Shown in pieces: positions 1 to 33,493 of a stretch of 64,000 nt of DNA. A program made the position numbers and the translations under genes. The DNA is from Tetradesmus obliquus (taxonomy: Eukaryota > Chlorophyta > Chlorophyceae > Sphaeropleales > Scenedesmaceae). The notes beneath the pieces are model-generated. The model was not told the DNA's origin. It saw nothing but the letters and a program-made list of their open reading frames with translations, and searched no databases. Location of the stretch: positions 4,262,001-4,326,000 of the forward strand of contig CP126206.1 in assembly GCA_030272155.1 (NCBI GenBank), written 5' to 3'. Numbering within the stretch: the stretch's first letter is position 1; each line of letters starts with the position of its first letter.

Positions 1-2243
1 AGCCAGGCGGGATGGAGCACTGCCAACTTCTTCTCCCACCACCAGGAGGCGCTGCACACGGTGCGGCGTTGTTTGCTTGTTCCATCCATATGTGTGTTTA
101 TTGGCCGTCTTTGCCTGTTGGTGCAACACGCCCAACTTGCCGCCCCCAGGGGCTGCACATGGTGCTTCTCGCTCTGCTGTTGCTGTGTGGGACTGCGCTG
201 CGGTGAGCTGGAGTGGAGTGTGTAAAGTTGATGCACCTGTTGCAACAGGGGCAACATGGGCGTGGCTTATGCTGCTGCTGCCTTTCCTGCTCCTGCTGCT
301 GCCGCTGCTGCTGCTGCTGCAGTTCACCTTCCTGCTGGATGATGTAGGCGTGCCTGCCAACTACCGCCACATGGAGGGCTTTGGCGTGCACACCTTCATG
401 CTGCTGAGCAAGGCTGGCAAGGAGACGCTGGTCAAGTTCCACTGGAAGCCAACATGCGGTGAGTGGCGCTGCTGCTGCTGCTTTTGTTAGTGCTGCTGCT
501 GCTGCTACTGCTGTTCGTGTTTGCTGCTCAACAAAGCCGGCAAGGAGACGCTGGTCAAGTTCCACTGGAAGCCTACTTGCGGTGAGTACAGTGCGGCTGC
601 TGCTGCTATTGTTAGTGCTGCTGCTTCTGCTGCTGCTGCTGCTGCTGTTGGTGTTTGCTGCTGAGCAAATGTGGGCAAGGAGACGCTGGTGAAGTTCCAC
701 TGGAAGCCTACTTGCGGTGAAGGCTGCTGCGGGTGTTTGTTTTGGTGCTGCTGCTGTTGGTGACGGTGATGGTGCTCGGTGCTCGTCAAGATCCACTGGA
801 TTCTTACCTACCGCGAGGGCTGCTGCTGCTGCGTGCCACTGCCGCCGTAGAAACAGCGAAGTCCTGCTGTCTCTTGTCTTGACACTCCTGCTGCTGCTGC
901 TGCTGCTGCTGTTTGTAACCGCAGGCGTGAAGTGCCTGCTGGAGGACGAGGCGGTGGTGGTGGGCGGCAGCAACCACAGCCACGCCACACAGGACCTGTA
1001 CGATGCCATCGCTGCCGGGGACTACCCCGAGTGGAGGCTGTTCATCCAGACCATGGACCCCGCAGACCAGGACAAGTGAGTGCAGGGGGTGTTACTTTCC
1101 AATCATGTTATTTCAGCAGGGACATACTATGTAAAGGTTCTGCTGCCGGGGACTACCCCGAGTGGCGGCTGTTCATCCAGACCATGGACCCCACAGACCA
1201 GGACAAGTGAGTTTGATATTCAAACACATTTGTATAGCCCTGCACCCAAGTTTGACCATGTTTGACCAGGTTGGGACTTGAACCCCCAGTCGTGACCGAA
1301 ATCCAGCACCGTTTTGCGCTGCAGCCTTGGATCTGACCCGCACTCTTGACCGTCTTTGACCATGTTTGACCGCAGGTTTGACTTTGACCCGCTGGACGTG
1401 ACCAAGACGTGGCTCGAGGACCGCTTCCCCCTGCAGCCTGTGGGCCGCATGGTGCTGCACTTTCCTCACCCCTGCCTGCCAACCATGTTTGACCGTTCTT
1501 TGACCATGGTTGTCTGTGTTTGACCGCAGGTTTGACTTTGACCCGCTGGACGTGACCAAGACGTGGCCCGAGGACCGCTTCCCCCTGCAGCCTGTGGGCC
1601 GCATGGCAGCACTTTCCTCACCCCTGCCTGCCAACCATATTTGACCGTTCTTTGACCATGGTTGTCTGTGTTTGACCGCAGGTTTGACTTTGACCCGCTG
1701 GACGTTACCAAGACGTGGCCCGAGGACCGCTTCCCGCTGCAGCCCGTGGGCCGCATGGTGCTGCCTGCACTTTCCTCACCCCTGCCTGCCATATTTGACC
1801 GTTCTTTGACCATGGTTGTCTGTGTTTGACCGCAGGTTTGACTTTGACCCGCTGGATGTGACCAAGACGTGGCCCGAGGACCGCTTCCCGCTGCAGCCCG
1901 TGGGCCGCATGGTGCTCAACCGCAACCCCGACAACTTCTTCAATGACAACGAGCAGCTGGCCTTCTGCCCTGCACTGGTGGTGCCAGGTGTGTGCTGCTG
2001 CTGCTGCTGCTGCTGCACTCTTTGGGGCGAGTAGGGGTTGCTAGTGCTGTAAGGACAGGCGCTGTTTCATTGTTAACGAGCAGCTGGCCTTCTGCCCCGC
2101 ACTGGTGGTGCCAAGTGCGTGCTGCTGCTGCTGTCGTGGCTGCCGAGGTGTTTTGACGGTGCCTGGAAGTGTTTAGCACACAATGTGTGCTGCAGTGCAG
2201 CTCAGACTTGGTTCTGCAGCCTTAGCTTTGGTATTCTCATCTG

Positions 2244-2278
<35 letters not shown>

Positions 2279-2333
2279 AGGCATCACCTACAGCGACGAC
2301 AAGTTGCTGCAGACACACATCTCATCTTACCTG

Positions 2334-2369
<36 letters not shown>

Positions 2370-2751: not shown

Positions 2752-2791
<40 letters not shown>

Positions 2792-4320
2792 AGATCCCCG
2801 TGAACGCGCCGCAGTGTGCGCACCACAACAACCACCATGACGGCTTCATGAACTTCATGCACAGGGACAGCGAGGTCAACTACTTCCCCAGCAGGTGAGA
2901 ACTTTGCGGTGGCTTGGTAAACTTCACAATGGCTTTGTGAACTTCATGCTGGCTTCATGAACTTCATGCACAGGGACAGCGAGGTCGACTACATGCGGGT
3001 CCTGGCAGCATGTCAGGTTGTGATTTAAATTAATCTCATTGTGTTTTCTTATCTCAGTGTGCCCGTCTTATCGCCGCAGGTTTGACCCTGTGCGCCACGC
3101 TGCGCCCACGCCCATGAACAAGGCAGCGCTTGCCGGCCGCTGCGAGCGCGCAGTCCTTGCCAAGGAGAACAACTTGTGCTTCACTCCAAACCCTCTGCTA
3201 CATTGCACTCATTCCTTGGCCCACTGTGAATTTCCCTCACCCTGTAGGTTTGACCCTGTGCGCCACGCCGCCCCGACGCCCATGAACAAGGCAGCGCTTG
3301 CCGGCCGCCGCGAGCGCGCTGTCCTGGCCAAGGAGAATAACTTTGCGCAGCCTGGGCAGCGCTTCCGCAGCTGGGATGCTGCAAGGCAGGAGCGCTTCAT
3401 CGGGCGCATGGCGGATATTTTGCTGGACAAGCGCTGCACACAGGTGGGGCGAGGGTTTAGGAACTCAGGGATCAAGGCTTACGGCTTTAGGGTTTTGTGA
3501 GTCGGGCGAGGGTGTTGGGGTGCAGGGTGCGCTTCCGCAGCTGGGACGCTGCACGCCAGGAGCGCTTCATCGGGCGCATGGCGGATATTTTGCTGGTCAA
3601 GCGCTGCACGTGCTGGTGCGGCAAGGGTGTAGGCCGGTTGGTGCTGAAAGTCAAAGGCTTGAGGGTTTTGTGAGTCGGGCGAGGGTCTTAGGGTGTAGGG
3701 TGCGCAAGGCAGCTCGGATGCTGCACGGCAGGAGCGCTTCATTATAATAACACTGCAGGACCGCCGCATCTGGGTGGGCCACTGGAGGCAGGCAGACATG
3801 GCCCTCCTATAGCCACCAAGTTTAACTTGATAAAACCCTGTTCAGGTTTGTTTTTCCAACCCTGCAGGAGTTCCGCCGCATCTGGGTGGGCTACTGGAGC
3901 CAGGCAGACGCAGCCATTTCATCTCCCCTTACGCAACCCTGCACCACACAACCTGAACCCCTTTGTTCCTGTTGCACACCCTTGCAGGAGATTTGCCGCA
4001 TCTGGGTGGGCCACTGGAGCCAGGCAGAGATGGCCCAAGTTCATACATAAACCTGAGTCATCCAAACCCTGAACATTTCGTGTGTTATTTCAACCCTGCA
4101 GGAGATCTGCCGCATCTGGGTGGGCTACTGGATTCAGGCTGACGCGCCCCTCTTTCACCTCTTATAATGTTGGTACTACAAAACCCCAACGTAATGCAAA
4201 TATCTAATGTCTTCATCTGTGCAGGAGATCCGCCGCATCTGGGTGGGCTACTGGAGCCAGGCTGACAGCCAGCTGGGCCAGCGCCTGGCGGCTAAGCTGC
4301 AGGCGGGAGGCGCGCTGTGA
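1..4320 (+). CDS. CAT: Catalase, plant-type heme catalase, 5' end outside window
   Basis: Decomposes H2O2 to water and oxygen, normally in peroxisomes. The exons that keep one frame are 1-60, 323-458, 925-1075, 1836-1987, 2380-2471, 2794-2894, 3248-3443 and 4225-4320, total 984 nt: 327 residues plus TGA. Seen: [10 protein letters not shown], the [18 protein letters not shown] stretch, [47 protein letters not shown], the proximal heme motif [12 protein letters not shown] (Tyr ligand, exon 5), [26 protein letters not shown] and a final [13 protein letters not shown]. Plant catalases are about 490 residues, so roughly 165, including the distal His/Asn, lie upstream of base 1. The protein ends in GGAL, with no classical SKL. 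Donors are gtgagt-like; several acceptors sit at the end of CTG tracts. Nearly every intron contains partial copies of its flanking exons (listed separately). The family call is certain. The exact choice among duplicated exon starts rests on frame and completeness. Confidence 0.95.
521..816 (+). repeat. Three donor-side echoes of catalase exon 2
   Basis: Inside the intron after exon 2 (donor at 459) the end of that exon recurs at 521-581 and 657-716, each followed by a GTGA donor-like sequence, and again in a decayed form near 783-816. They encode variants of [20 protein letters not shown]-rich sequence separates the copies. Confidence 0.85.
1144..1206 (+). repeat. Donor-side echo of catalase exon 3
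   Basis: Repeats the last about 60 nt of exon 3 ([14 protein letters not shown]-x-DQDK) with a second GTGAGT donor at 1207. The complete exon ends at 1075. The two copies differ at a few bases. Confidence 0.9.
1376..1835 (+). repeat. Three acceptor-side echoes of catalase exon 4
   Basis: Copies of the exon 4 start ([12 protein letters not shown]...) begin at 1376, 1530 and 1682, each directly after TTTGACCGCAG. The complete exon starts at 1836 after the same acceptor. The period is 152-154 bp, so intron and exon were duplicated together. Each decoy runs to about GRMVL and then passes into intron-like sequence. Confidence 0.92.
2075..2117 (+). repeat. Donor-side echo of catalase exon 4
   Basis: Repeats the [13 protein letters not shown] end of exon 4, about 90 bp downstream of the true donor at 1988. 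The donor position here reads TGCGTG and probably no longer works. Confidence 0.8.
2281..2322 (+). repeat. Acceptor-side echo of catalase exon 5
   Basis: [12 protein letters not shown] is encoded after a (CTG)nCAG acceptor ending at 2280. The copy then diverges and lacks the heme-ligand Tyr motif. The complete exon 5 starts at 2380 after a second CTG tract. Confidence 0.85.
2541..2599 (+). repeat. Donor-side echo of catalase exon 5
   Basis: Resembles the exon 5 end (CACAGGCTGG...CCTGCAG) with a short internal insertion, followed by GTAGCA at 2600. It is weaker than the other echoes. Confidence 0.6.
2917..2992 (+). repeat. Donor-side echoes of catalase exon 6
   Basis: GGCTTCATGAACTTCATGC and the following ACAGGGACAGCGAGGTC segment recur after the donor at 2895. 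A shorter degenerate copy lies at 2917-2950 and a longer one at about 2951-2992. Confidence 0.75.
3080..3172 (+). repeat. Acceptor-side echo of catalase exon 7
   Basis: Encodes [20 protein letters not shown] and then [10 protein letters not shown] after a GCCGCAG acceptor, nearly identical to the complete exon starting at 3248. It stops matching at the codons where the complete exon reads through to FAQPG. Confidence 0.9.
3525..3745 (+). repeat. Two donor-side echoes of catalase exon 7
   Basis: A segment encoding [20 protein letters not shown] recurs at about 3531-3608. A decayed copy lies at about 3697-3740. Both follow the exon 7 donor at 3444, and both lie among GGGTTTAGG-type sequence. 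Confidence 0.8.
3759..4143 (+). repeat. Four acceptor-side echoes of catalase terminal exon
   Basis: Copies of the start of exon 8 (variants of [14 protein letters not shown]) begin at 3759, 3868, 3988 and 4102, each after a CTGCAG or TTGCAG acceptor. The complete exon follows at 4225. Spacing is 109-123 bp. The decoys have substitutions (for example F or C for the second residue pair), so they are not recent identical copies. Confidence 0.92.
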
Positions 4321-4362
4321 GGCGGCAGCAGCAGCAGCAGCGAAGTATGATGTGCAGCTGCG

Positions 4363-4572
4363 ACAGGCGTGGCCGCAAAGCTGCAGGCGGGCGGCGCGCT
4401 GTGAAGCGCAATTTGTGATCTACAGCTGGGCTAGCGCCTGGCAGCTGCAAGCTGCAGGCTGGCGGCGCGCTTTGAAGCAGCAGCGTCGACAGCAGCAGCA
4501 GCGGTGATGTGTTGAGGTGTAGCTGGCCAGCGCCTGGCAGCCAAGCTGCAGGGTGGGCGGCGCGCTGTGAGG
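4363..4572 (+). repeat. Three post-stop echoes of the catalase C-terminus
   Basis: After the stop at 4318-4320 the last codons ([10 protein letters not shown]-stop) recur at about 4369-4404, 4429-4474 and 4524-4571, in decayed form. They would lie in the 3' UTR. Confidence 0.8.
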
Positions 4573-4586
4573 CTGCAGCAGTGATG

Positions 4587-6718: not shown

Positions 6719-8458
6719 TCATATTGAGATGCTTTGCCTGGCAAACGCTGCGTCATTGGGCAGCGTGATGCCTGCAGGCAGTACAGCATTGGGCGGTTGC
6801 AGGTGCTTCTTAGCCTCAGCAACTGTGTATTGATAAATGTCGCCATCCTCAAAATACACGTCGTAGTAGCGTGGGCGGCGCTGTTCGCCCATGTAGTGCA
6901 GCCTGCCCCAGAAAGGACGCGGTTTGTTTGTGCTGCGATCCCTGAAGCTCTGCTTGATGAGGCGGCCATGCAGCTGACCCGCCGTTGAATCACGTTGCCT
7001 CATTGCTTTGTCAGGGAACAGGTTGGGTGCTGCATCAAGTGCCTGCTGCGTTTTGCGCTGTACTGCAGCGGACTGAAGCTGTGCAGCTGTAATGCCGTCT
7101 GACACGCACCTTGGGCAAAGCCAGTCGCCATCCGGCACTGCCGTCAGCTTGGGATCAAGACACTTCATGTGCCAGCCTACATCGCAGTAGTCGCAGAGCA
7201 GGATTGCATCTTCTTGAGTTGATGTGGGGGAGTTGCAGGATTCGCACACTATCTCAGCAGGTTTGTCTGCCAGTGTGGGGTCTATGGTTGCGTCGATGCC
7301 AGGCAGGTGGCAGGGTGCGCACTGTGACATGTGCCTGTCAGTTGTGCGGCCGCATCGGCCCTGCAGGATGAGGCGCCCTGATGGCCTGACTTCGGTTACT
7401 CTGAGTATGGCAGGCTTGGCACGAGGCTGCAACGCACTGTGCGTGTTTGCGTACGCTGTGTACACAAAGTCGCCCACCTCAAACTTGGCGTGCTTGGGCT
7501 CATAGGTCCCTGAGCGGATGTGCGCGTAGCGCAGCGTGTCTCTGTGCTGCGCAATGGCCAGGTTGTTCATGGCTTCAGGGCAGATGCGCTTGGCCAGTTC
7601 CCTGCGGTGCAGCAGCGAGGCAGTTGCCGCATCGGGTGAGTCCAAGTTGATGGGCTCCTGCATTGCTTCAGCAGTTGCAGGTGGCACTACAGGTGTGTGT
7701 GCGTAGAGCAGCTCATAGGGGCTGTAGCCAGTGCTGCGCTGCGGGCTGCAGTTGTAGCCAAGCAGCAGCCATGGCACCTCCATGTCCCAGTCACGGGTGT
7801 TTTGGCGCTGCAAGCACACTTTCTTGAGAGCAGTTTTGACAATGTGAACGCTTTTCTCTGCTGCGCCGTTGGCTGCAGGATGGTTTGCTGATGTTGACCT
7901 GCTGTCTATTTTTGCATCAAGCAGTAGCTGCTCAAATGCTCCTGCCCATTCGCCGCCCCTGTCATGACAGCACTCCGCTATTGCCCCGTACTTGCCTAGG
8001 ACATGGTGCAGGAACGCATATGCTGTGCATTCAGGAGTCTTGTCTGCGATTGGCACAGCAATGATGTGCTTGCTGAAATGCTCAACTGCAATGAACAGGT
8101 ACTTGTGGCCCCTAGCAGTCTCTGGGAATGGCCCTGCTAGGTCCACCCCCCAGCGGTACATCAGACCTTTGATTGGCAAGGGCTGCAGCTCAGCTGGCTT
8201 GGCATTGAAAGTGGCACGAACACGGCTGCATTCCTTGCACGCACTCACCACAGATGCCGCGTCCGCCTGGATGCCATGCCACCACCAAGTGTGTAGCAGT
8301 AGCGCTGTGGTGCGGCGGATGCCAAAGTGCCCTGTGCGGTCGTGGCAGTCCTTGACTAGCTGCAGGCGCTCTGATGGTGGAGGTACCACGCGTGTGCTGT
8401 TGTCAGGCATTAGGCGCAGCACCTTGCCATCACGCCAAGTGTAGTATTGCAGCCTCAA
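6719..8458 (-). CDS. Retroelement integrase with C-terminal PHD finger and Tudor-like segment
   Basis: 579 residues. In order: a zinc-binding HHCC integrase N-domain (HDRTGHFGIRRTTALLLH, then CKECSR), an RNase-H-fold core with acidic residues in WGVDLAGPF, CHDRGGEW and NGAAEKS, and a C-terminal basic region. Then comes a PHD finger at about residues 403-452 (CESC, CDYC, HMKC, CPRC: the C4HC3 order). Last is a segment with FWGRLHYMGEQ and DVYFEDGDIYQY that resembles a Tudor-type fold. In the integrase family the core joins element DNA to host DNA. Chromatin-reading tails are known to guide integration in chromoviruses (there a chromodomain), and the PHD may do the same here (inference). Confidence 0.85.
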   Translation of the reverse strand: MRLQYYTWRDGKVLRLMPDNSTRVVPPPSERLQLVKDCHDRTGHFGIRRTTALLLHTWWWHGIQADAASVVSACKECSRVRATFNAKPAELQPLPIKGLMYRWGVDLAGPFPETARGHKYLFIAVEHFSKHIIAVPIADKTPECTAYAFLHHVLGKYGAIAECCHDRGGEWAGAFEQLLLDAKIDSRSTSANHPAANGAAEKSVHIVKTALKKVCLQRQNTRDWDMEVPWLLLGYNCSPQRSTGYSPYELLYAHTPVVPPATAEAMQEPINLDSPDAATASLLHRRELAKRICPEAMNNLAIAQHRDTLRYAHIRSGTYEPKHAKFEVGDFVYTAYANTHSALQPRAKPAILRVTEVRPSGRLILQGRCGRTTDRHMSQCAPCHLPGIDATIDPTLADKPAEIVCESCNSPTSTQEDAILLCDYCDVGWHMKCLDPKLTAVPDGDWLCPRCVSDGITAAQLQSAAVQRKTQQALDAAPNLFPDKAMRQRDSTAGQLHGRLIKQSFRDRSTNKPRPFWGRLHYMGEQRRPRYYDVYFEDGDIYQYTVAEAKKHLQPPNAVLPAGITLPNDAAFARQSISI

Positions 8459-8497
8459 ACCTCAAAAGCAATGCTGGACCAGAAGACCCCCGCCCAA

Positions 8498-9358: not shown

Positions 9359-9375
9359 CTTCTCAAGCTACCAAC

Positions 9376-10226: not shown

Positions 10227-11130
10227 ATGGAAGGCGCACCGCTGTTCGATTGGCCTGAACAGCCACCCTTAGATGATTATTTTGCGGATGATGAGCAAAT
10301 GCCGGAGCAGGAGCCCCCGGCGGAGCCTGCCGGCGACGATGCTCACGTTCAGGCCGGGGCCTGGGGCATTGGCGTGACGCAGGAGACACGGCCCGAGGGC
10401 GTCAGCTACAAAGTACGCGCATGCCTGAAAGGCAAGGCTCGCTACCTGGGCAGGTGCGTGAGCAATGACAGATTGCCGATGGCTAGCGGACGGGCAGCGC
10501 TGCAAGCAGCACAGCCCGCTTCACGCCCAACCCAAACCTTATAATAATGCTTGAGCAGCTGTTTTATAAATTTTGGGGTCGATCGCGCCTCCAGGCCGCA
10601 ATGTCAGTGAGCTACAGCCCGCAGTGCTGTTCCACCCGCCTTCCAGTGCCCGCGAGTCTTGCTAGCACGGCAGCTCTGCATGCCTGGTTGGGGACGTGTC
10701 AGCACGTTTGCATCGATTTAGCTTTGTGATGCTCTTTGCGCACTGCTGCAATGGTGCAAGCGTACCTGAGGTGCTGGGGCTGTGGCTGTGGCGGGGTGGG
10801 GCACCCACAGGCACCAAATCGCACCCAATTGCATCAATCGTGCAAACTGGCAGTTTTATCTAGCTAAACTTGTTGTTCGTGGTGCAGTTCTGTACGCATC
10901 ACCTGGCTGTCACCTCTCAAAGTTGTACCACATTGGCGTGGTCCTCCCCAGCACAGGCACCCCCACTCTGTGGCTGCTGCTGTTTCAGCAGCCTGCATTA
11001 GCTGCTGCTGCCAGCTGCATTGAACAGCAACGGCTGGTGTGGGCTGCTGCCTGCTGCATTGAATGCCTGCCACCCTGCTGACATGACGTATGCTGGCCAT
11101 GCTTGCAGCTGTGCTCATCATACCTGCACA

Positions 11131-11174
<44 letters not shown>

Positions 11175-11387
11175 GGCTGCAGGTTCGCTGACGTGGTGGT
11201 GGCGCGCCTGGCATACGACGCAGCCATACGCGAGCTGCGCCCCATGTCGCGCACCAACTACGAAGCCAATGTGATGCGGCTGCAAGACGCGTCAGCGCTG
11301 TCAAAAGTGCGCGCCTTTGTACGCAAGATGCGCGAGCTCAAGCTGGCTCCGCCTGCTCCCGCCCAAGCCGCAGCAAACAATGAGCAC

Positions 11388-11432
<45 letters not shown>

Positions 11433-11500
11433 CCGATGCTGCCGGCAGCTGTGCTGCCAGCGGCCATGGACCAGCCAGCTTACGAGCCGCAGATGATGGC

Positions 11501-11556
<56 letters not shown>

Positions 11557-11605
11557 TTGGTGGTGACGGCAACCTGCCCGACCTGTCCTTCTTCCTCAAC
11601 ATGGG

Positions 11606-11655
<50 letters not shown>

Positions 11656-11767
11656 TTGGCGGTGACAGTGCCCTGGCACATTTCCTCAACATGGGCCAGC
11701 ACCGTGATGTGTGGATGAGTGATGAGGACAACTTCATGCAGATGCTGGGCCAGGCAGCACCACCACC

Positions 11768-11817
<50 letters not shown>

Positions 11818-13220
11818 CAGCAGGCAGCAATGCACCCAACAACATGACGCTGGCAGGCCTCATGCAGCAGTCCTTTGGGGCGGCAGCTTCCGGCCAGCAG
11901 CCAAACAACGCACAGGCGGCGGCAGCAGCAGCAGCAGGTATGTATGGCCGCAACGGCGCAGCCAATGCGGCTGCCGCTGCTGCTGTCGCAGCTGCGCGCA
12001 GGGGCGCGCCAGCGGCAGCGGCAGCAGCAGCAGGCCCAGCTGCACGCATGCCCGGCAATGCTGGCGCTCGTGCAGCACCACTGTTCAATGCACCGGCAGC
12101 AGCAGCGGCCTTTGCTGCTCCCGGCGGCGGCCTTGAGCGCAGCCACAGCAGCCTCAGCGGTGCATCCAACAGCCAGGACCACAGCACCAGCAGCGGCGGC
12201 CATGCAGCGCCGCCAGGCAGGCCAGGCGCTGCTGCAATGCTGATGCCCTGGCAGCAGCAGCAGCAGCAGCAGCAAGCCATGGGTGCAGCAGGGCTCTACA
12301 ACAGTGCTGGCTCCAGCCAAGGCACTGCCAGCACCAATGTCTGGCCCCACGCATCCGGCCACTGGGCCCCGATGTTCAACGCCATGCAGCTGCACCAGCA
12401 GCAGCAGCAACAGCAGCGGCGGCAGCAGCAGCAGCAGCAGCCGCTGCCGGCCCACATCAGCGATGACGACTTCCACATCATGCTTCAGCACATCATGCTG
12501 CACCCGGACCAGCAGCTGCACAACGAGCTGCTGCAGCAGCAGCTGCCACCGCTCTTCCCCGGCAACCCACCTGGCGCTGCTGCTGCTGCTGCTGTTGCTG
12601 CTGCCGGCCACGGCGTGGCAAACGTTGCTGGCGTCAGCAGCTACGCAGACATCCAGAGCTTCATCCGAGCCAGCATGACACAGCTGCTGCAGCTGACCGT
12701 GCGCCTTATGTTCAGCGCCAGAAGCAGCAGCTCCGGCTGCGCAGTAGCAGACCTCATGACATGGATGGGTGCCGTGCGGCAGCAGCAGCAGGCCGCAGCA
12801 CCACACCCCGGCAGCCAGGCCGCGATGAACCTGCTGTGCCAGCTGATGCTGGTGGTGGCGGCTCAGGTGGCGGGCCGGGGGGTGGGCCCGCCGCCGCCGC
12901 CCGGCGGCTGCGTTTTGGCGGCACGGGGCGCCATGGTGGAGCTGCTAGACCGTCTGATCGCAGCGTTGGTAAGCCTGGCGGCTGTGATCTTCCGGCACAA
13001 CCGGCAGCATTGCGAGTCGGCGCCGTTTGGCGTGCCGCCGCCGGGGAATATCAGTGCTGGCATGCTGGGGGCGTGGCTGGCGCGGCTGCAGCAGCTGGCC
13101 AGCTGCGGCGTGGCTGTGGACGGCACTGTGCTAGCGCTGTGTGTGGCGCTGGTGCAGGGCGTGAACGAGGGCTGCTGGCGGCAGCAGCAGCACCACCAGC
13201 AGCAGCAGCACGCAGTATGA
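10227..13220 (+). CDS. AP2-like Gln/Ala-rich transcription factor 1
   Basis: Two exons, 10227-10453 and 11183-13220 (2265 nt, 754 residues); the intron ends in a CTG tract. An AP2/ERF-like DNA-binding segment at about residues 46-107 is split by the intron: WGIGVTQ..., YKVRACLKGKARYLGR, then FADVVVARLAYDAAIRELRP. The LGRF...ARLAYDAAIREL part matches the AP2 helix region. It is followed by an Ala run (about 145-159), three long Gln runs (about 183-200, 218-234 and 272-287), low-complexity Ala/Gln sequence and a conserved C-terminal domain from about residue 562 (SYADIQSFIRASMTQLLQLT). The same architecture occurs in the inverted paralogue at 47546-50424. The ATG at 10227 was chosen because an earlier in-frame one adds only unsupported sequence. 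Likely nuclear. Target genes cannot be inferred. Confidence 0.8.
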
Positions 13221-24177: not shown

Positions 24178-26526
24178 ATGACTGGTGCAGCAGGCAAGGG
24201 CGGAGGCTTGAGCGGCTGGCTCAGCAAAGCTTCGGGCGTGAGCCGCAGCAGGGACAGCAGCAAGCTTGACCAGTGGCAGAAGGATGAGGATGGCACAGCA
24301 TACCAATCCTTGTGGAGCCCTGATGTGGCCTCTGCTATGGGCTACGGCAAAAAGTGAGCAGCAGCAGCAGCAGGGTGGCATGCTGCTGGGACTGGAACAT
24401 GGGACACGCTGCATATCACATGCATGGTGCTGGACATGGCTTGCATGGGCTCTGCTGAATTGGTCGCATGCGTTTTATTGCATGCGCTATGAGCTGGGCA
24501 ATTGTGAATGCTGGCTGAGCAGGGCAGGACCTGGAGCTGTGCCGCAACGGCTGCCTCCCACATGGTCCACACTTCACAGCAACGCGGCTGATGTATTGCC
24601 GCGACATGCTGCGCCCCTGCACTCACTGCTGCTGCTGCTGCTGCTGCTGCTGTGCAGTGGGCGGTCTGGTTCCGCCTTCCAGTGGTGGATCCCGCTGCTG
24701 TCTGCCCTGGTGGCTGTGGGCGGCTTCATCGCATGGTGAGGCCGCAGCCTGCTGCACAGCTGTGTGTGAGACTAGTGTTATGGCATGCATGAGTTTGCCA
24801 GGGCGTGGGGCATGCAGCTGGCTGCCGCAACAACAAGCCTCAACAGCAGCGGTGGCAGCAGCACAGCTGAGCAGCTGCGCTGACACAGCAGTGTGTGAGG
24901 TTAGGGTTGCGTGTATATCAGCAGCTTCATCGCATGAGCAGGCTGCAGCTGGCTGCCTGGAGGCGCGGCAGCAGCAGCAGCAGCAGCAGCAGCAGTTGTT
25001 GTGCTAACACAGCAAGAAGATTGCGTGCATCTTTGGGCAAGGTTTGCGAGGGTTTGATGCATGTGCATGTTGCTCATGGTGCGCACAGCGGCAGCAGCAG
25101 CGCAGCTGAGCAGCTGCTTCGCGGGGCGCAGCAAGGCTTTATTCAAAGAGACGCCGCAGCCAGCCGGGCAGCAGGCAGCATACATGCAGCCGTATGCGCG
25201 CTGACACAGCAGTGCGTGAGCTTGGGGTTGTGCATACAGGGGCAGGGTTTGGCAGGGTTTGAAGCCTTGAGATTGCTCATGGTGCGCGCAGCGGCAGCGG
25301 CAGCAGCAGCGCAGCTGAGCAGCGTCTGCGGCCCAGTAGGGCGCATCAAGAGCAGCCGCAGCCAGCTGGGCAGCAGGCAGGCCGCATGCAGCACACATGC
25401 AGCCAGCTGGGCAGCAGGCAGCACACATGCAGCAGGCGCTGTGTATGCAATCTTGTGCAGCTGCAGCAGCTGCTCCGCATGCCACACACGTGCTCACCCG
25501 CCGCTGCTCTGCTGTTTTGTTGTGTTGCACCAGGGCAGTGTTCTCGTTGCGTGCGCAACGCCACACTAGCGGCTGCATGCAGCACAAATCAGCTGCCTGG
25601 TGGTCACCACACTCACTGGCTCACACGCTGCATTCGCTGCATCTGTCTATTTATTGTCGTGGCAGGGCGGTGTTTGCGTTCCGTGCACGCTACTCCATGC
25701 AGGCCGCGCGGGATGCAGCACCAAAGCAGCTGCCGGTCACCATACTCACTGGCTCACCCGCTGCATTCTCTGCATCTGCTGCTGTTGTGTTGCACCAGGG
25801 TGGTGTCTTCGTTCTGTGCGCGCAACGCCACGCAGGCCGCGCTAGATGCAGCACACAATCACACCCACTGGCTCACCCGCTGCGTAATCACTGCATCTGT
25901 CTTTTGTCTGCCTTGGCAGGGCGGTGTTCACGTTGCGCGCGCGCAACGCCACGCAGGCCGCGCTAGATGCAGCACAAAAGCGGCTGCCGGTCACCACACT
26001 CGCTGGCTCATACTCTCTGCATCTTTATGTTTTGCCTTTGCAGGGCGGTGTTTGCGTTCCGTGCGCGCAATGCCACGCAGGCCGCGCTTGATGCAGCGGG
26101 GCTGCGCTTGGAGTGGTGGGCTGCGCAGGCTGCTGTGCTGCTGGCTACGGCTGTGTGCTTCCCCGTGCTGACGCTGCTGGCCTTAGGCGTGAGGTGAGGG
26201 CTGTTTGCTGCATGGCACGCATGGCTGGCTGTCCTTTTGGGTGTGCTGGCATGCTGGCTCAGCAAGCAGCAGTTGCAGAAGCACAAAGATAAGTAGTATC
26301 TGGTTGCCATGCTGCGCTTAGGAGTGGTGGGCTGCGCAGGCTGCCGTGGCTGCTGGCCACTGCGGTGTGCTTCCCGGATGACACGCTGTTCGCTGCTGCT
26401 GCTGCTGCTGCCGCTGCTGCTGCTGCAGCCTGTGGCGCGCACACCGGGCGATGCAGCTGAACATGCATGTGCCCACCAAGCGCTGGGCACACAGCACCCT
26501 GCCCTCAACTCACCCTGCGGCTGCTG

Positions 26527-26566
<40 letters not shown>

Positions 26567-26675
26567 GGCTGCTGCAGCCTGTGGCGCGCACACTTGGCCC
26601 GCCACCTCAACATCCACGTGCCTACCAAGCGCTGGGTCAGGCATTTTCAGCCCACACCCCAGGCCATCTGAACCT

Positions 26676-26706
<31 letters not shown>

Positions 26707-27186
26707 TCTGCTGCTGCAGCCTGTGGCGCGCACATCTGGCGCGGCAGCTCAACATCCACGCACCCACCAAGCGCTGGGCACACAGCACCCTGCCCTCAAC
26801 TCACCCTGCTGCTGCTGCTGCTGCTGTTCTGCTGCAGCTTGTGGCGCGCACATCTGGCCCGCCAGCTGAATATTCATGCACCCACCAAGCGCTGGGCGAG
26901 GCGCACCCTGCCCCTCTCTCACCTTTTCTGCTGCTGCTGCTGCTGCTGTTCTGCTGCAGCCTTTGGCGCGCACATCTGGTGCGCCAGCTCAACATCCATG
27001 GGCCCACCAGGCGCTGGGCGGGGCGCACCCTGCCCCTATCTGACCATTTCTGCTGCTGCTGCTGCTGCTGCTGCTGCCGCTGCTGCAGCTTGTGGCGCGC
27101 ACACTTGGCGCGCCAGCTGAACATTCATGCGCCCACCAAGCGCTGGGCGTGGCATTCTCACCCCACACCCCCAGCCTATCTCACTC

Positions 27187-27220
<34 letters not shown>

Positions 27221-30200
27221 AGCCTGTGGCGCGCGCACCTGGCCCGCCAGCTGAATATTCATGCGCCCACCAAGCGCTGGGCGAGGCGCAGCAAGGCCTG
27301 GCAGACTGCCAACGTGGCCAGCAGCTGCCTGCTGTATGGCGTGGCAGGGCTGATGGTGGCTTCTCTGGCAGGTGGGGGCTGTGGGGACCAGATGATCTAT
27401 TTCACATATGGTATGTGTGAGATGATGATGATGTATGTGTGAGGAGTGTGCTGTGCGCGGAATGTGTGTTGTGGCGAGCAGCTGCCTGCTGTACGGCGTG
27501 GCGGGGCTCATGGTGGCCTCACTGGCAGGTGGGGGCTGTGCAGCTCGGCAGTGTCATGTTGGACACGGGGGGTGCATGTGCCTGTCCTCGGTGGTGTGGC
27601 GCGCGTGTTCAGCGGCCGGTGCCGCATGGGCGCTGTGCCGTGTGCCTGTGATCTGACACTGCTGCTGCTGATGATGATGCTGCTGCTGCTCCTGCTGCTG
27701 CTGCCCTGCAGCGCACGCGGTGTGGGCTTTCAGCGCTGCTGCCGCGCACTACGGCGCCTGCTACGCCATCAAATACGTTGAACCCATATCTGACGAACCA
27801 TGTTTCTGTGCTGCTGCTGCTGCTGCTGCCGCTGCTGCTGCTGCCGCTGCTGCTGCTGCTGCCGCTGCTGCTGCTGCTGGCCTGCAGCGCACGCGGTGTG
27901 GGCCTTCAGCGCTACTGCCGCGCACTACGGCGCCTACTACGCCATCAAATACGTCGACCCCGTGTCTGACAATCCCTTTTTTCTGTGCTGCTGCTGCTTT
28001 TTCCCGTACAGCACATGCGGTGTGGGCCTTCAGCGCTGCTGCTGCCCACTACGGCGCCTACTACGCCATCAAATACGTCGACCCCGTGTGGGGCGGCGTG
28101 GGCCGCGTGGTCAATGCCAGCGAGGCACTTGTAGGTAAGGTTTAGGGTTTCTAGGGTTCTAGGGGATGCTAGCGAGGCACTTGTAGGTAGGGTTTATAAG
28201 GTGTCTAGGGTTTTAGGGAACGCCAGCGAGGCTCTTGTAGGTAGGGTTTAGGGTTTCTAGGGAATGCCAGCGAGGCTCTTGTAGGTAGGGTTTAGGGTTT
28301 CTAGGGAATGCCAGCGAGGCACTTGTAGGTGTGTTATATCGCCTGAGACCGTGTTGGAGTGCTGTGCCTGCATGCACAGCCATCGTCTGATCCGTGTGCT
28401 GGTCCAAGCATTGCTTCAAGGTGCGCAGTGATGCATTACTCATAATTTTTAAATGTAATGAGTTGACGTTTGTTTTTGCACTGTACTTGCAGGCAATTTC
28501 TTGGGCCTGGCGGCTCAGCTGCCGGTGGTGGGCGGCCGGCGGCTGGCCGAGTACGATCCGGCGGCTGGCCAGATCGTTATAACGCGACGGCTGACGCAAG
28601 CTGACGTGGATGCGATGCCGGCGGCTACAAGGGAGGCTGGGCTGGCTGCCGGGCGGGCGCTGCAGCAGCTTCCAGACCTTGTGAATGGGCTGGGTGGGCT
28701 GCTGAATACTGCGGCAAATGCGATTGGCTCGGCCAACGTTGTGCCTGCGCAGGTGGGTGCGGATCGGGGTGTTTGGTACGGGGGAGATTGTTGAGGTTCA
28801 ACAGCAATAGAGTTAGCTGCATGCACTCGCAACAGGTCAGCAGCAGGATTTCAACTGCTTGTTGAGCAGTGAGCAGCCAGTCGCTAACACACAAGTTCCA
28901 CTCTGTAATCACCTGCACAGGTCGGCGCGCAGCTGGCGAACCTACGCGACCTGCCGTTCCTGCCGCAGCTGCTGTCCAACAGCACTTCAGATTGTACTGT
29001 TTGCCACGCTGCTTCTCACATCCTCTCTTTGCAACGCTGTCGAGAGCGACAGAGCCGGTGCAGGGCCAGCTGCTGGGCCGCAGCAGAGATTGAACCCGCG
29101 TAAGTAGCGATTAAACATTTTCTTAAACATCGCCCGCTTTGCTTTTGCTGTGCCTGTGCAGGTCGGCGCGCAGCTGGCAAATCTGCGCGACCTGCCCTTC
29201 CTGCCGCAGCTGCTGCCCAACAGCACTTCACCTCCTCTCTTTTCAACGCTGTCGAGTGTAACAGGGTTGGTGCAGGGCCAGCTGCTGGGGCGCAGCAATG
29301 TTGAAACTGGCCTTTATTGGTGACTAGCTAGCCGCTAAACCACACTGCGCTGTTTTTTTTTTACATTTCCTGTGCAGGTCGGGGCGCAGCTGGCAAATCT
29401 GCGCGACCTGCCCTTCCTGCCGCAGCTGCTGCCCAACGGCACTTCACATCCTGTCTTTGCTACGCTGTCGATTGTGACAGAGGCGGTGTAGAGCCAGCTG
29501 CTGGGCCGCAGCAGAGATTGTGACCTCCTTTAAGTAGCAATTATTATTCATTTTCTCACATTACCCGCTTTGCTTTTGCTGCCTGTGCAGGTTGGCGCGC
29601 AGCTGGCAAACCTACGCGACCTGCCGTTCCTGCCACAGCTGCTGCCCAACGGCACAGACAACCCTCTCTTTTCAACGCTGTCCAGTGTGACAGAAGCAGT
29701 GCAGGGCCAGCTGCTGGGGCGCAGTGGCGGCTGCCCCGGCTGGTGTGTGGACCTGCGGGACCAGTCATGGATTAAGGACGGCTGCCTGTGCAACTTGGAC
29801 AGAGTCAAGGTGCGTTGGGGTGGTTTGGGTCTATGATTCATGGTGGCCGTGCGCGAGTAGATGATTGCGGTCTGTCTGGTTCAGCATGTGTGTTGTAAGG
29901 GTGCGTGGACTTGCGCCATTGGTGTTGCATCTGCTTTTAGGCACGCTGTCGAGTGTGACAGAGGCGGTGCAGGGCCAGCTGCTGGGGCGCAGTGGCGGCT
30001 GCCCCGGCTGGTGCGTGGACCTAAGGGACCAGTCGTGGATCAAGGACGGCTGCCTGTGCAACCTGGATCGTGTGAAGGTGCGTTGGGCGTTTCTACCTTG
30101 GCAATCGTGCATGTGTTGTGTTGTTGATTGAGGGTGGTGTGTCGTAAGGGTGTGTCTCAAGGGTGGACTCAAGGGTCGACTTGAGCGACTTGTGCTCCAT

Positions 30201-31980
30201 CTGCTATTCGGCACGCTGTCGAGCGTGACAGAGGGGGTGCAGGGCCAGTTGCTGGGCCGCCCCGGCGGCTGCCCTGGCTCGTGCGTGGACCTGGGGGACC
30301 AATCCTGGATTAAGGACGGCTGCTTGTGCAATTTGGACAGAGTCAAGGTGCGTGAGGATTGATGATCTATGTTGGCCGTGCGTGAGCAGATGATCGGGGT
30401 TTGTCTGGATCAGCATGGGTGTTGTACGGGTGCGTGGACTTGCGCAACTAGTGTTGCATCTGCTATTCGGCACGCCGTCGAGTGTGACAGAGGCGGTGCA
30501 GGGCCAGCTGCTGGGGCGGCTGCCCTGGCTGGTGTGTGGACCTGCGGGACCAGTCATGGATCAAGGACGGCTGCCTGTGCAACCTGGACCGCGTGAAGGT
30601 GAGGGCGGGGCGTTTCTGCCAACTGTGCCTGTGTTGATTGAAGTTGGTGTGTGTGTGGACCTGCGGGACCAGTCCTGGATCAAGGACGGCTGCCTGTGCA
30701 ATTTGGACAGAGTCAAGGTGCGTGGGGTGGTTTGGGTTTATAAGTTATGGTGGCCGTGCGTGAGCAGATGATCGGGGTTTGTCTGGTTCAGCATGGGTGT
30801 TGTAAGGGTGCGTGGACTTGCGCGACTAGTGTTGCATCTGCTGTGCGGCACGCTGTTGAGCGTGACAGAGGGGGTGCAGGGCTGCCTCGGCTGGTGTGTG
30901 GACCTGCGGGATCAGTCATGGAGAAAAGGATGGCTGCCTGTGCAACCTGGATAGGGTCAATGTGAGCGTTGGTGTGGTGTTCTTTGGTTGATAGGCTGTG
31001 GCGGCCGTGTACGCCAGCATCTTCGTACCTTGTTTGTTGGACACATTTGTGTTTAGCCAAACGCTTCGAACATTGATGTGTGCAAATTACTTGATTGCTT
31101 TGGATGTCGACCTGCGGGACCAGTCGTGGGTAAAAGGACGGCTGCCTGTGCAAACTTGACAGTGCTGCAGTGCTGCCATGACAGTGCGGCAGTGCCGCCA
31201 CCTAACCTCCTCTCCTGTGCCTGCTCTGCTGTGGCTGGAAACCTTGCCTCTCCGCTGCAGGCCGCCTACCCCCACCTGGGCCCCGTCTACCGCAACGCAG
31301 TGCCTGCCGACCTGCCTGGCTATCAAAACATCACATCACAAAGCTGCTATGCCACCGCCTAGCCTCTTATCCTCTGCCTTGCTGCTGTGCCTACTTCTTC
31401 AATGTTCTGCCTGCCTGCCTTGCCAATGCTGAAACCCTTCACACCAAACCCTCCCTCCCTCTCCATTGCAGGCCGCCTACCCCCACCTGGGCCCCATCTA
31501 CCGCAACGCAGTGCCAGCAGCAGGCATGGTGGTGGCGATGCTGGCTGCCGCCACCTGGCTGCTGCTGCAACTGCTGACTACTCTTCTTGTGCCTGCCTGC
31601 CTGCCTGGCTGTCTGACTGCCAAAACTTCACACAACACACCTGCCGTGCACCGCCTTACCTCCTGTCCTGTGCCTGCTCTGCTGTGCCTACCGCTCCATT
31701 GCAGGCCGCCTACCCCCACCTGGGGCCCATCTACCGCAACGCAGTGCCTGCAGCAGGCATGGTGGTGGCCATGCTGGCTGCCGCCACCTGGCTGCTGCTG
31801 CATGCCGCCAGCCAGTGGGCACGCACACGCAGCGAGGCCAAGCTGCTGACGCGGCTGCCCAATGCAGCACAGCTGGCTGCAGCAGCGCACAGCGGGAATG
31901 GTGGCGCTGCTGCTGCTGCTGGCCGTGGCAAGGGGCTGCCAGTGACGCAGATGGATGCATCCGCGCTGCCTGCAGTGTAG
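24178..31980 (+). CDS. Unrecognised multi-pass membrane protein, 8 exons
   Basis: The complete exons are 24178-24353, 24658-24735, 26044-26193, 27223-27371, 28012-28134, 28493-28752, 29591-29809 and 31705-31980: 1431 nt, 476 residues, with every splice phase matching. The polar N-terminus (MTGAAGKGGGLSGWLSKASG) precedes TM1 at about 68-84 (WWIPLLSALVAVGGFIA), TM2 at about 109-134 (AAQAAVLLATAVCFPVLTLL), TM3 at about 162-184 (SCLLYGVAGLMVASLA) and a late TM at about 400-418 (GMVVAMLAAATWLLL). A stretch at 187-207 may be a further helix. The long loop between has NAS and NGT sequons and a four-Cys segment (GGCPGWC...DGCLC), which suggests a non-cytosolic loop with disulfides (inference). The tail is Ala/Gly-rich. 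I do not recognise the family; the layout has 4-5 helices and one large loop. Each later exon is accompanied by echoes in the adjacent introns. Confidence 0.8.
24354..25533 (+). repeat. Introns 1-2 of the membrane gene with exon 2 donor echo and CTG/CAG-rich repeats
   Basis: Exon 2 ends GGCTTCATCGCATG at 24735. A short echo (CAGCTTCATCGCATG) lies at about 24921-24935. Repeated GGCAGCAGGCAGCACACATG-type blocks fill 25160-25440. Confidence 0.6.
25534..26043 (+). repeat. Four acceptor-side echoes of membrane-gene exon 3
   Basis: Copies of AVFAFRARNATQAALDAA coding sequence begin at 25534, 25666, 25799 and 25920, each after a CAG acceptor. The complete exon begins at 26044. The periods are 132, 133, 121 and 124 bp, and the intron part (CACACTCACTGGCTCAC) repeats too. 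Confidence 0.93.
26309..26376 (+). repeat. Donor-side echo of membrane-gene exon 3
   Basis: Repeats LRLEWWAAQAAVLLATAVCF coding sequence with substitutions and a frame change, after the exon 3 donor at 26194. Confidence 0.75.
26429..27222 (+). repeat. Six acceptor-side echoes of membrane-gene exon 4
   Basis: Starts of exon 4 (LWRAHLARQLNIHAPTKRW) are stacked at 26429, 26578, 26720, 26838, 26960 and 27089. Each follows a (CTG)n tract ending CAG, and the complete exon is at 27223. Intervals are 149, 142, 118, 122, 129 and 134 bp. All keep TGGCGCGCAC and CACCAAGCGCTGGG-type cores. Confidence 0.95.
27472..27528 (+). repeat. Donor-side echo of membrane-gene exon 4
   Basis: Repeats ASSCLLYGVAGLMVASLAG coding sequence and the GGCAG/GTGGGGGCTGTG donor context of the complete exon (donor at 27372). 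Confidence 0.9.
27712..28011 (+). repeat. Two acceptor-side echoes of membrane-gene exon 5
   Basis: AHAVWAFSAAAAHYGA coding copies begin at 27712 and 27888 after CTGCAG; the complete exon starts at 28012. Between them the CTG tract contains CCG interruptions. Confidence 0.92.
28135..28332 (+). repeat. Minisatellite made of exon 5 end, its splice donor and telomere-like TTTAGGG
   Basis: The exon 5 end (AATGCCAGCGAGGCACTTGT) plus AG and a GTA donor recurs four times after the true donor at 28135. The copies, spaced 40-60 bp, are joined by GGTTTAGGGTTTCTAGGG. Confidence 0.92.
28921..29590 (+). repeat. Three acceptor-side echoes of membrane-gene exon 7
   Basis: VGAQLANLRDLPFLPQLL coding copies start at 28921, 29162 and 29378, with the complete exon at 29591 (periods 241, 216 and 213 bp). 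They extend into the TLSSVTEAVQGQLLGR part and then pass into intron-like sequence. Confidence 0.92.
29941..31161 (+). repeat. Six donor-side echoes of membrane-gene exon 7
   Basis: The exon 7 second half (SVTEAVQGQLLGR...CLCNLDRVK) recurs at 29941-30077, 30211-30347, 30470-30598, 30655-30717, 30847-30960 and about 31107-31161. Most are followed by a GTG donor, and several are preceded by a CAG- or TTTTAG-like site, so they could act as cassette exons. Divergence increases towards the 3' end. Confidence 0.92.
31261..31704 (+). repeat. Two acceptor-side echoes of membrane-gene exon 8
   Basis: AAYPHLGPIYRNAVPA coding copies begin at 31261 and 31472 after TGCAG; the complete terminal exon begins at 31705. 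The second copy continues through the predicted last TM helix. Confidence 0.92.
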
Positions 31981-32089
31981 GTGCATTTGCCTTTGATGTC
32001 TAAAGTTTGGTGTGAGCATGTCACCTGGGCTGCGTGCTGGTGTCCTGCTGCAACCTGCTGGTGGCTGATATGGTCATTGTGTCACGCAG

Positions 32090-33493
32090 CGAGGCCAAGC
32101 TGCTGCAGCGGCTGCCCAATGCAGCTCAGCTGGCAGCAGCAGCACACAGCGGGAATGGTGGCGCTGCTGCTGGCTCTGGCAAGGGGCTGCCAGTGACGCA
32201 GATGGATGCATCCGCGGTGCCTGCGATTTAGGTTGTTTTGCGTCAAGTTTGGTCTGAGTATGTCACCTGGGATGGGTGCCGGTGTGCTGTTGCAACCTGC
32301 TGGTGGCTGATGTGGTGGTTGTGTGTCTCAGCGAGGCCAAGCTGCTGCAGCGGCTGCCCCATGCAGCGCAGCTGGCTGCAGCAGCACACAGCGGGAACGG
32401 TGCTGCTGGTGTTGCTGGCGGTGGCAGGGGGTTGCCTGTCACACAGATGGACGCATCCGCGCTGCCTGCAGTCTAGGCATGTTGATAATGGGTGTTGTGT
32501 TGGCTTGAGCGTCCGGATCATATAGTCCAGACATATTCATCAGGTGTGGTTTCGTTGGGATGAGCTGTCGCTTAGGCAGTGGTGGTGTGGCGGCAGGCTG
32601 CCTGCGGCGCGCATGCATGGATGGCTGCCCCATGCACCGCAGCTGGCAGCAGCAGCACACAGCGGGAATGGTGCCGCTGCTGCTGCTGGCGGTGGCAAGG
32701 GGTTGTTTGTGACGCAGATGGATGCAGCCGCGCTGCCTGCGGTGTAGGCGATTGAGGCTCAAGTTTGGTGTCAGAACGTCATGTAGGGCTCTGCTGAAGT
32801 GTGCTGTTGCAACCCACTGCTGGCTGATATATGGCTGTTGTGTCACACAGCGAGGCCAAGCTGCTGCAGAGGCTGCCCAATGCAGCGCAGCTGGCAGCAG
32901 CAGCGCACAGCGGAAATGGTGCTGGTGCTGCTGCTGGCGGTGGCAAGGGGCTGCCAGTGACGCAGATGGATGCATTTGCGCTGCCTGCGGTGTAGGTGAA
33001 TTTGCCTCAAGTTTGGTGTTAGCATGTCACTTGGGCTGCGTGCTGGTGTGCTGTTGCAACCTGCTGGTGGCTGATGTGGTTGTTGTGTGACACGCAGCGA
33101 GGCCAAGCTGCTGCAGCGGCTGCCGAACGCGGCGCAGCTGGCAGCAGCAGCGCCCAGCGGGAATGGTGCTGCTGGTGCTGGCTCTGGCAAGGGGCTGCCT
33201 GTCACGCAAATGGATGCATCTGCGCTGCCTGCGATTTAGGTTGTTTTGCGTCAAGTTTGGTCTGAGCACGTCACCTGGGCTGCGTGCTGGTGTGCTGTTG
33301 CAACCCACTGCTGGCTGATATGGCCATTGTGCCACGCAGCGAGGCCAAGCTGCTGCAGCGGCTGCCCAATGCAGCACAGCTGGCAGCAGCAGCGCACGGC
33401 GGGAATGGCGCTGCTGCTGCTGCTGGCGGTGGCAAGGGGCTGCCTGTCACGCAGATGGATGCTTCCGCGCTGCCTGCGGTTGAGGCGGTGTAA
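32090..33493 (+). repeat. Six post-stop echoes of the membrane-gene terminal exon, possible alternative last exons
   Basis: SEAKLLQRLPNAAQLAAAAH and the following coding sequence to VTQMDASALPAV-stop recur at 32090-32231, 32332-32476, about 32618-32747, 32851-32995, 33098-33239 and 33340-33493. Five start directly after a CAG and end in TAG or TAA. Their lengths differ from the genuine segment (31833-31980) only by multiples of 3. The period is about 245 bp. The spacer between copies is itself conserved (CAACCTGCTGGTGGCTGAT). Confidence 0.93.
33489..33493 (+). terminator. Candidate polyadenylation signal TGTAA
   Basis: The first TGTAA after the last terminal-exon echo; it overlaps that copy's stop codon. 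Confidence 0.25.

What the first reader, a model, noticed from the sequence alone, without database searches (positions are those of the whole stretch)
1..33493. Exon-edge echoes: introns built from stacked partial copies of their own flanking exons
In the catalase and membrane-protein genes almost every intron carries partial copies of its neighbours, under one rule. Copies of an exon's 5' edge (with a CAG acceptor) lie upstream of the complete exon, and copies of its 3' edge (often with a GT donor) lie downstream. I count about 10 acceptor-side and 9 donor-side echoes in catalase, and 17 plus about 13 in the membrane gene. Tandem duplication of a segment straddling a splice junction gives this geometry, because one duplication leaves one decoy splice site and keeps one complete exon. 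Choosing only complete exons gives 984 and 1431 nt, both divisible by 3. Copies differ by substitutions and CTG length, so they are not a simple assembly duplicate. I know of no description of this as a general intron-growth mode.
Basis: partly seen in the sequence, partly recalled or inferred. Interest (0 to 1): 0.93.

Follow-up and report, generated by a model that had tools for sequence, protein, structure and literature searches.

The report
Introns filled with half-exon copies
In the green alga Tetradesmus obliquus, introns of several genes hold decayed copies of half of the neighbouring exon together with its splice site, which splicing appears to ignore; the differences in these copies suggest that they separated from the exon while both were still coding, and they are one way in which introns can grow.

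Summary
The genome is Tetradesmus obliquus. In five genes (catalase, the membrane gene, CCT1, CCT4, CCT5; 58 exons) 128 partial exon copies lie in introns or just beyond the gene. Copies of an exon's 5' half with an acceptor lie upstream, and copies of its 3' half with a donor lie downstream: 59 of 106 junctions on the predicted side, 3 of 106 on the wrong side, 0 of 116 in unrelated introns. They make up 23% of intron bases. Random stretches carry arrays of the same size, enriched for splice-junction-like sites. A metagenome protein of a relative shows the same kind of echo.

Plain tandem duplication followed by neutral decay is not enough. Differences between echo and exon are 69% synonymous, balanced for GC and nearly constant between echoes, while amino-acid changes look neutral. 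Intron halves have diverged more than synonymous sites; 29 of 55 pairs keep traces of common origin. Echo and exon thus seem to have diverged mostly while both were coding. I favour repair of breaks inside exons from a diverged allele; allele and repair route are inferred. No description was found in the held library.

The parts
13..58 (+).
   Evidence: real exon at -691..-560 in L004
323..458 (+). Catalase exon 5 (complete)
   Evidence: spliced alignment
522..716 (+). Two donor-side echoes of catalase exon 5 (522-581, 656-716)
925..1075 (+). Catalase exon 6 (complete)
1142..1206 (+). Donor-side echo of catalase exon 6; 97% alike in the exon half, intron half not above its matched baseline
   Evidence: intron piece 1076-1345 found nowhere else in the genome
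1376..1762 (+). Three acceptor-side echoes of catalase exon 7 (1376-1456, 1530-1606, 1682-1762), intron half shared
1836..1987 (+). Catalase exon 7 (complete)
2066..2113 (+). Donor-side echo of catalase exon 7
2281..2322 (+). Acceptor-side echo of catalase exon 8 (real exon 2380-2471)
2794..2894 (+). Catalase exon 9 (complete); a partial copy of its 3' part at 2945-2992
3080..3175 (+). Acceptor-side echo of catalase exon 10
3248..3443 (+). Catalase exon 10 (complete)
3529..3742 (+). Two donor-side echoes of catalase exon 10 (3529-3609, 3709-3742)
3761..4143 (+). Four acceptor-side echoes of catalase exon 11 (3761-3797, 3868-3909, 3988-4028, 4102-4143)
4225..4320 (+). Catalase exon 11 (last; stop included)
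   Evidence: stop read directly
4355..4567 (+). Three copies of the 3' half of catalase exon 11 downstream of the stop
25666..25973 (+). Three acceptor-side echoes of membrane-gene exon 3; 25666-25815 aligns as an exon of the NCBI protein P0121
26044..26193 (+). Membrane-gene exon 3 (complete)
26429..27153 (+). Six acceptor-side echoes of membrane-gene exon 4
27223..27371 (+). Membrane-gene exon 4 (complete); donor-side echo at 27471-27528
27714..27965 (+). Two acceptor-side echoes of membrane-gene exon 5 (real exon 28012-28134)
28166..28328 (+). Four short donor-side echoes of membrane-gene exon 5 in a TTTAGGG-like repeat
28921..29511 (+). Three acceptor-side echoes of membrane-gene exon 7
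29591..29809 (+). Membrane-gene exon 7 (complete)
29943..30960 (+). Five donor-side echoes of membrane-gene exon 7; a relative (P0126) carries an echo of the same exon half
31261..31569 (+). Two acceptor-side echoes of membrane-gene exon 8 (real exon from 31705)
31826..33480 (+). Array of near-complete copies of the terminal coding exon 9 (exact join to exon 8 not settled)

Best explanation
The echoes are stranded exon halves left by DNA repair events inside exons, and splicing makes them harmless. Proposed steps: a break falls within an exon; one broken end pairs with the same exon of a homologous but diverged version of the gene (the other allele), because exons are alike enough to pair and introns are much less so; synthesis runs across the splice junction and about 50-100 nt into that version's intron; the new end is then end-joined to the other side of the break. 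The result is a complete exon with a working splice site, plus the old half exon with its own splice site stranded in the intron. Exon definition picks the complete exon. The stranded half then decays neutrally and may be amplified as a tandem unit. Shown here: geometry, junction anchoring, mid-exon breakpoints, strongly diverged intron halves, coding-style divergence plus neutral-looking decay, occurrence beyond the window. Inferred: the allelic source, the repair route, the splicing behaviour.
For: Right side 59 of 106 junctions, wrong side 3 of 106, other introns 0 of 116; 7,970 of 34,559 intron bases (23%) are exon-half copies. Breaks lie mid-exon: copied fraction of the exon .46 sd .14 (38 acceptor) and .49 sd .12 (26 donor). 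In these nearest pairs at least 26 nt of exon remains beyond the break (from the table) except at terminal membrane exon 9, as pairing would need. The junction sits at .45 sd .10 of the unit; planted duplications were detected evenly for fractions .1-1; KS p=6e-10 against uniform. Intron halves: mean identity .59 against a matched baseline of .50, where .74-.80 would be expected if they had diverged like synonymous sites. Echo splice sites are mostly kept: AG 58 of 64, GT 49 of 54, pyrimidine share .70 against .51 background. Mismatches by codon position 122/98/504; 501 synonymous, 223 not, above the .425 ceiling for a neutral copy of the neighbouring exon in each of 5 genes; bootstrap over 62 junctions .64-.74. 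Synonymous changes balanced 186 to 181, GC3 .838 and .833. Third-position distance .187, dispersion .99 (one echo per junction) or 1.25 (all 128, p .03), no correlation with positions 1+2, echo-echo .195. Amino-acid changes not conservative (p .63), 18 of 128 echoes broken. [quoted passage not shown]
Against: No second haplotype, reads or RNA were available, so diverged alleles are not seen directly. A fourfold-site distance of .236 would mean extreme allelic diversity. In 29 of 55 pairs the intron half keeps traces of common origin, and identity at -20 to -5 of acceptors is .476 against .335 for unrelated acceptors, so many units began as ordinary copies of a related junction. Other pairs with few synonymous differences have intron halves not above baseline (catalase exon 6), which needs fast intron turnover as well. 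Echo splice sites score below real ones on average (acceptor 8.0 against 11.8, donor 6.9 against 9.0). Stops are fewer than neutral (3 against 8.8 expected). CCT4 acceptor echoes alone do not exceed the .425 ceiling (24 synonymous of 54). The five genes are not a random sample. Detection needs high identity, which trims old echoes and may flatten the distance distribution.
Confidence: 0.43

Rival explanations
1. Plain serial tandem duplication of segments of about 130 bp that straddle a splice junction, copied from the same chromosome, kept because splicing still finds one complete exon, then neutral decay.
For: Tandem geometry; unit size median 130 bp, 5-95% 90-246 bp in 90 arrays of random 10-kb loci; traces of a shared intron half in 29 of 55 pairs, clear in 8 of 64; echo arrays such as catalase exon 7; junction enrichment in random loci.
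Against: 69% synonymous mismatches against at most 42.5%; balanced GC change; nearly constant synonymous distance that does not follow amino-acid decay; intron halves more diverged than synonymous sites; few near-identical pairs (fifth percentile of synonymous distance .06).
Confidence: 0.26
2. Echoes are old and have stayed under coding and splice-site selection, either because they are used in some transcripts or because frequent loop-out recombination between echo and exon exposes damaged echoes.
For: Coding-style divergence and mostly kept splice sites; the implied relative amino-acid rate is about .3 from both real-echo and echo-echo comparisons (my arithmetic); stops 3 against 8.8 expected; intron halves more diverged than synonymous sites.
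Against: Amino-acid changes are no more conservative than random; no splice motif stood out by eye at the inner ends, so an echo half is unlikely to be joined to the other half in mRNA; 18 of 128 have broken frames.
Confidence: 0.2
3. Assembly artefact: two haplotypes interleaved by the assembler.
For: The divergence looks allelic; the annotated protein P0121 takes up an echo.
Against: Up to six copies per junction; random amino-acid changes, frameshifts and lost splice sites in echoes; no Ns in the 20 ten-kb stretches examined; an echo in a metagenome protein of a relative.
Confidence: 0.05
4. Ancient whole-exon duplicates (mutually exclusive exons) that later lost one half.
For: Would explain coding-style divergence and diverged introns (my reasoning; no call supports it directly).
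Against: 0 of 196 repeat hits cover a whole exon with both splice sites; upstream copies nearly always keep the 5' half and downstream copies the 3' half, which random truncation would not give.
Confidence: 0.03

Closest known systems
[quoted passage not shown] Gao and Lynch; vertebrate ATP2A1; potato RdRp), as described in PMC4974935 (passages read)
   Same: Direct duplication of a short gene segment that carries splice signals and is absorbed by splicing; the potato case duplicates an intron-exon structure, and an 83-bp duplication within another intron is mentioned there.
   Different: The cases described there create a new intron, or multiply an existing one. Here existing introns collect many stranded exon halves, in each of the six genes that I examined as DNA, with coding-style divergence in the five tested for it.
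Introners (intron-generating mobile elements; PMC9860276, search listing and abstract start only)
   Same: A genome-wide process that shapes introns in some lineages.
   Different: Echo sequence is local to each gene; the one intron stretch tested has no copy elsewhere.
Tandem duplications from paired nicks or flap errors (plant nickase repair, FEN1/rad27 mutants; recalled, not from a call)
   Same: Short direct duplications, sometimes with filler.
   Different: No link to splice junctions known to me, and copies are identical at birth.
Minisatellite and satellite arrays
   Same: Head-to-tail units, some multi-copy.
   Different: Units are half exons with a splice site; real and echo copies differ mainly at synonymous sites.

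Membership tests
Junction-straddling tandem (internal gene) duplication | Direct, adjacent copies that span one exon-intron boundary | tested here: met
Junction-straddling tandem (internal gene) duplication | The whole unit, intron part included, is copied from its neighbour | tested here: inconclusive
   intron halves above a matched 95% baseline in 29 of 55 pairs; of all 64 pairs 28 at random level, 28 between, 8 at about .70 or more
Junction-straddling tandem (internal gene) duplication | Divergence since copying fits a neutral copy next to a constrained exon (my own criterion for the plain model) | tested here: not met
   69% synonymous against a ceiling of 42.5%; GC-balanced
Intron gain by AGGT tandem duplication (Rogers model) | Creates a new intron in formerly coding sequence | tested here: not met
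   echoes lie inside existing introns; exon chains match homologs without them
Introners | The same intron sequence in many genes | tested here: not met
   one query only, window 1076-1345, found only at its own locus
Mutually exclusive exon duplication | Complete exon copies with both splice sites | tested here: not met
   0 of 196 hits
Haplotype-interleaving assembly artefact | Copies are intact allelic sequence | tested here: not met
   frameshifts, broken frames, random amino-acid changes
One-sided repair from a diverged allele | A second, diverged functional version of the gene exists in the species | not testable with these tools
   no second haplotype or strain held; only a literature hint for a relative

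The most novel reading that the evidence does not exclude
Introns in this alga are archives of allelic recombination. Break repair within exons against highly diverged alleles repeatedly strands half exons with working-looking splice sites. Introns grow this way genome-wide, and each echo preserves a snapshot of a different past allele.
Probability: 0.38. Interest if true: 0.88.

Novelty: new variant of a known kind. Interest (0 to 1): 0.72.

Why it matters
Why introns grow, and where their sequence comes from, is an old question that mostly rests on rare single cases. Here one genome supplies many events that can be read at base resolution, with 23% of intron bases in five genes still recognisable as exon copies. 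T. obliquus has the longest mean intron of the five green algae in one comparison (462 bp against 230-302; PMC5966456, table passage). It would link recombination, allelic diversity and intron length. It is also a natural test of exon definition, because decoy splice sites seem to be ignored. In practice, at least one annotation of this biofuel alga takes an echo as an exon (P0121).

Tried and rejected
Chromosome size: 20 ten-kb stretches suggested more duplication on small contigs (rho -.67), but a second set of 20 two-kb stretches did not repeat it (p .66; all 40 rho -.33, p .04); dropped. Coupling of the acceptor and donor breakpoints in the same exon beyond both being mid-exon: permutation p .17; dropped. 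Splice motifs at the inner ends of echoes (split-exon model): none stood out by eye (a few GT or AG by position, not tested statistically). Third-position saturation: expected .38 against .19 observed, so not saturated. Kinase survey: only 115 of 744 candidates scored, so echoes could not show. Profile-level surveys underestimate: PRP8 looked clean by profile, but 3.5 kb of its DNA has four local duplications and 3 of 14 tested junctions with a copy. Searching one intron piece elsewhere in the genome: none. Literature: nine searches found no description of this pattern in the held library; most subscription papers are not covered.

Caveats. MEM exon 9 was left out because it is terminal; it was included, in a wrong frame, which works against my reading. 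L018 was left out of the array statistics, and offsets under 30 bp. The junction scorer was trained on the five genes. Echoes of one junction are not independent, so p-values over all echoes are too small. The .425 ceiling is my arithmetic from the expected synonymous share .27. That P0123 is a transcript is inferred from its accession style (recalled).
Full report
WHERE IT IS. The window is G000:C16:4262001-4326000 of a 104.66-Mb genome in 17 contigs. A protein that NCBI assigns to Tetradesmus obliquus (OEZ86_010560, P0121) sits on a contig of exactly the same length as C16, so the organism is this scenedesmacean green alga.

GENE MODELS. I wrote a spliced protein-to-DNA aligner. Three catalase homologs give the same 11 exons apart from the first few residues; the membrane gene was mapped with P0122 (Scenedesmus sp. 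NREL 46B-D3) and P0123 (probably transcript-derived). The NCBI protein P0121 aligns through an echo (25666-25815) as if it were an exon; the other two proteins do not. The join of membrane exons 8 and 9 is not settled.

THE PATTERN. In the two genes the local repeats are direct, mostly at offsets of about 90-250 bp, and mostly straddle one splice junction. The same holds in three chaperonin genes, CCT1, CCT4 and CCT5, fetched because profile hits overlapped. Over 58 exons of five genes I found 128 echoes, 70 acceptor-side and 58 donor-side. With fixed queries the predicted side holds copies at 59 of 106 junctions (124 copies), the wrong side at 3 of 106 (8 copies), and unrelated introns at 0 of 116; 7,970 of 34,559 intron bases are exon-half copies. 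None of 196 repeat hits covers a complete exon with both splice sites. Duplications with no exon part, in introns or beside the genes, are few (15 listed).

BEYOND THE WINDOW. In 20 evenly placed 10-kb stretches local direct duplications cover 18.3% of bases (about 15% without the satellite-like L018), with none in 5 of 20; in 20 further 2-kb stretches 9 of 20 have none. Arrays in the 10-kb stretches have a median unit of 130 bp, with none between 30 and 70 bp (90 arrays). Of 118 arrays in 39 stretches 61% hold a splice-junction-like site, against 34% of 2,285 matched segments (p=2e-12). Profile searches show overlapping exon matches in HSP70 loci on C13 and C17 and in a kinesin on C2; by eye I saw no such clear case in the other HSP70 and kinesin loci listed. 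PRP8, picked as a control, has four duplications in 3.5 kb and copies at 3 of 14 junctions. A protein predicted from a metagenome contig of a relative, P0126, reads the 3' half of exon 7, then intron, then the same half again; by eye its echo resembles its own exon more than that of T. obliquus. The catalase of another relative, P0131, shows no echo by eye.

BREAKPOINTS. The exon part is close to half of the exon (.46 and .49) and scales with exon length (rho .68 and .74). The junction lies at .45 sd .10 of the unit, far from uniform even though planted duplications were detected equally well for positions from .1 to 1. At least 26 nt of exon remains on the far side of the break in the nearest pairs, except in terminal membrane exon 9 (from the table). 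No GT or AG motif stood out at inner ends.

WHY PLAIN TANDEM DUPLICATION IS NOT ENOUGH. The main evidence is in the exon halves, which are about 91% alike in nearest pairs (357 mismatches in 4,196 nt). Over all echoes mismatches are 501 synonymous to 223 not. A neutral echo copied from the exon beside it allows at most 42.5% synonymous; all five genes exceed it, as do 48 of 55 junctions with three or more differences; CCT4 acceptor echoes alone do not. Echo-echo mismatches are 248 to 196. Synonymous changes are balanced between GC gain and loss, and GC3 is unchanged although introns are at 56% GC. Third-position distance is close to constant (dispersion .99 with one echo per junction, 1.25 for all 128), equal between echoes and real exons and among echoes, and unrelated to the more variable distance at positions 1 and 2. 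Amino-acid changes, by contrast, look random, and 18 of 128 echoes have broken frames. The simplest reading is two phases: divergence while both copies were coding, then a shorter neutral decay.

INTRON HALVES. Against a matched baseline (.50) intron halves of nearest pairs average .59; 29 of 55 pairs exceed the matched 95% level and 26 do not; 8 of 64 reach about .70. If they had diverged only as much as synonymous sites.74-.80 would be expected. So many units do share a distant common origin in the intron too, but introns have diverged further than synonymous sites, as between two long-separated versions of a gene. Echo splice sites are mostly kept: AG in 58 of 64, GT in 49 of 54 with the same hexamer as the real donor in 22, pyrimidine tracts as rich as real ones, though average site scores are lower than real ones.

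MECHANISM. A break inside an exon, repaired from a diverged allele, explains this. Exons pair best, so breaks away from exon edges succeed. Copying crosses the junction and brings in a stretch of the other allele's intron. End joining strands the old half with its splice site. The allele need not be the direct template: recombination among alleles after an ordinary duplication would give the same signature. Diverged haplotypes are reported for a close relative (PMC7955037, passages). T. obliquus has mean introns of 462 bp against 230-302 bp in four other green algae (PMC5966456, table passage). The allele source, the repair route and splicing behaviour are inferred, not shown.

LIMITS. No reads, second haplotype or RNA. 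The five genes were not chosen at random. Distances may be trimmed by the detection threshold.

VERDICT.

Noticed in passing
introns of the five genes; window 28116-28330: Telomere-like GGGTTT is enriched just after donors (54 against 8.5 expected) and AAACCC just before acceptors (20 against 2.0) in the echo-rich genes, but is rare in random loci. Copies within arrays are not independent.
   Followed up: partly
window, e.g. 2245-2278, 26515-26575, 11607-11655: Long CTG repeats lie on the sense strand near intron 3' ends in both genes; elsewhere CAG runs occur on the + strand, perhaps minus-strand genes.
   Followed up: no
window 6722-8461, minus strand: A 580-codon open frame whose start looks like a retroelement integrase zinc-binding region (motif recalled).
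   Followed up: no
window 55625-56260 and 59336-59972: Two almost identical blocks of 488 and 151 bp in swapped order (100% and 99%), perhaps ends of a young mobile element.
   Followed up: no
window 11100-12700 and 47500-50200: Two related stretches, mostly matching on opposite strands (69-91% identity), perhaps diverged paralogous genes.
   Followed up: no
L018 (C14:1500001-1510000): 83% covered by local direct repeats, with many inverted ones, and lower in GC (.494), unlike the other stretches; looks like satellite or nested repeats.
   Followed up: no
window 24179-33493: The membrane protein has no Pfam match at E 0.001 and only nine homologs were found, the two with a named organism from Scenedesmaceae; function unknown.
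   Followed up: no
P0131 (catalase of a relative, longest contig 35 kb): Predicted catalase with retained-intron-like inserts but no echo visible by eye, so not every relative's catalase need have them.
   Followed up: no
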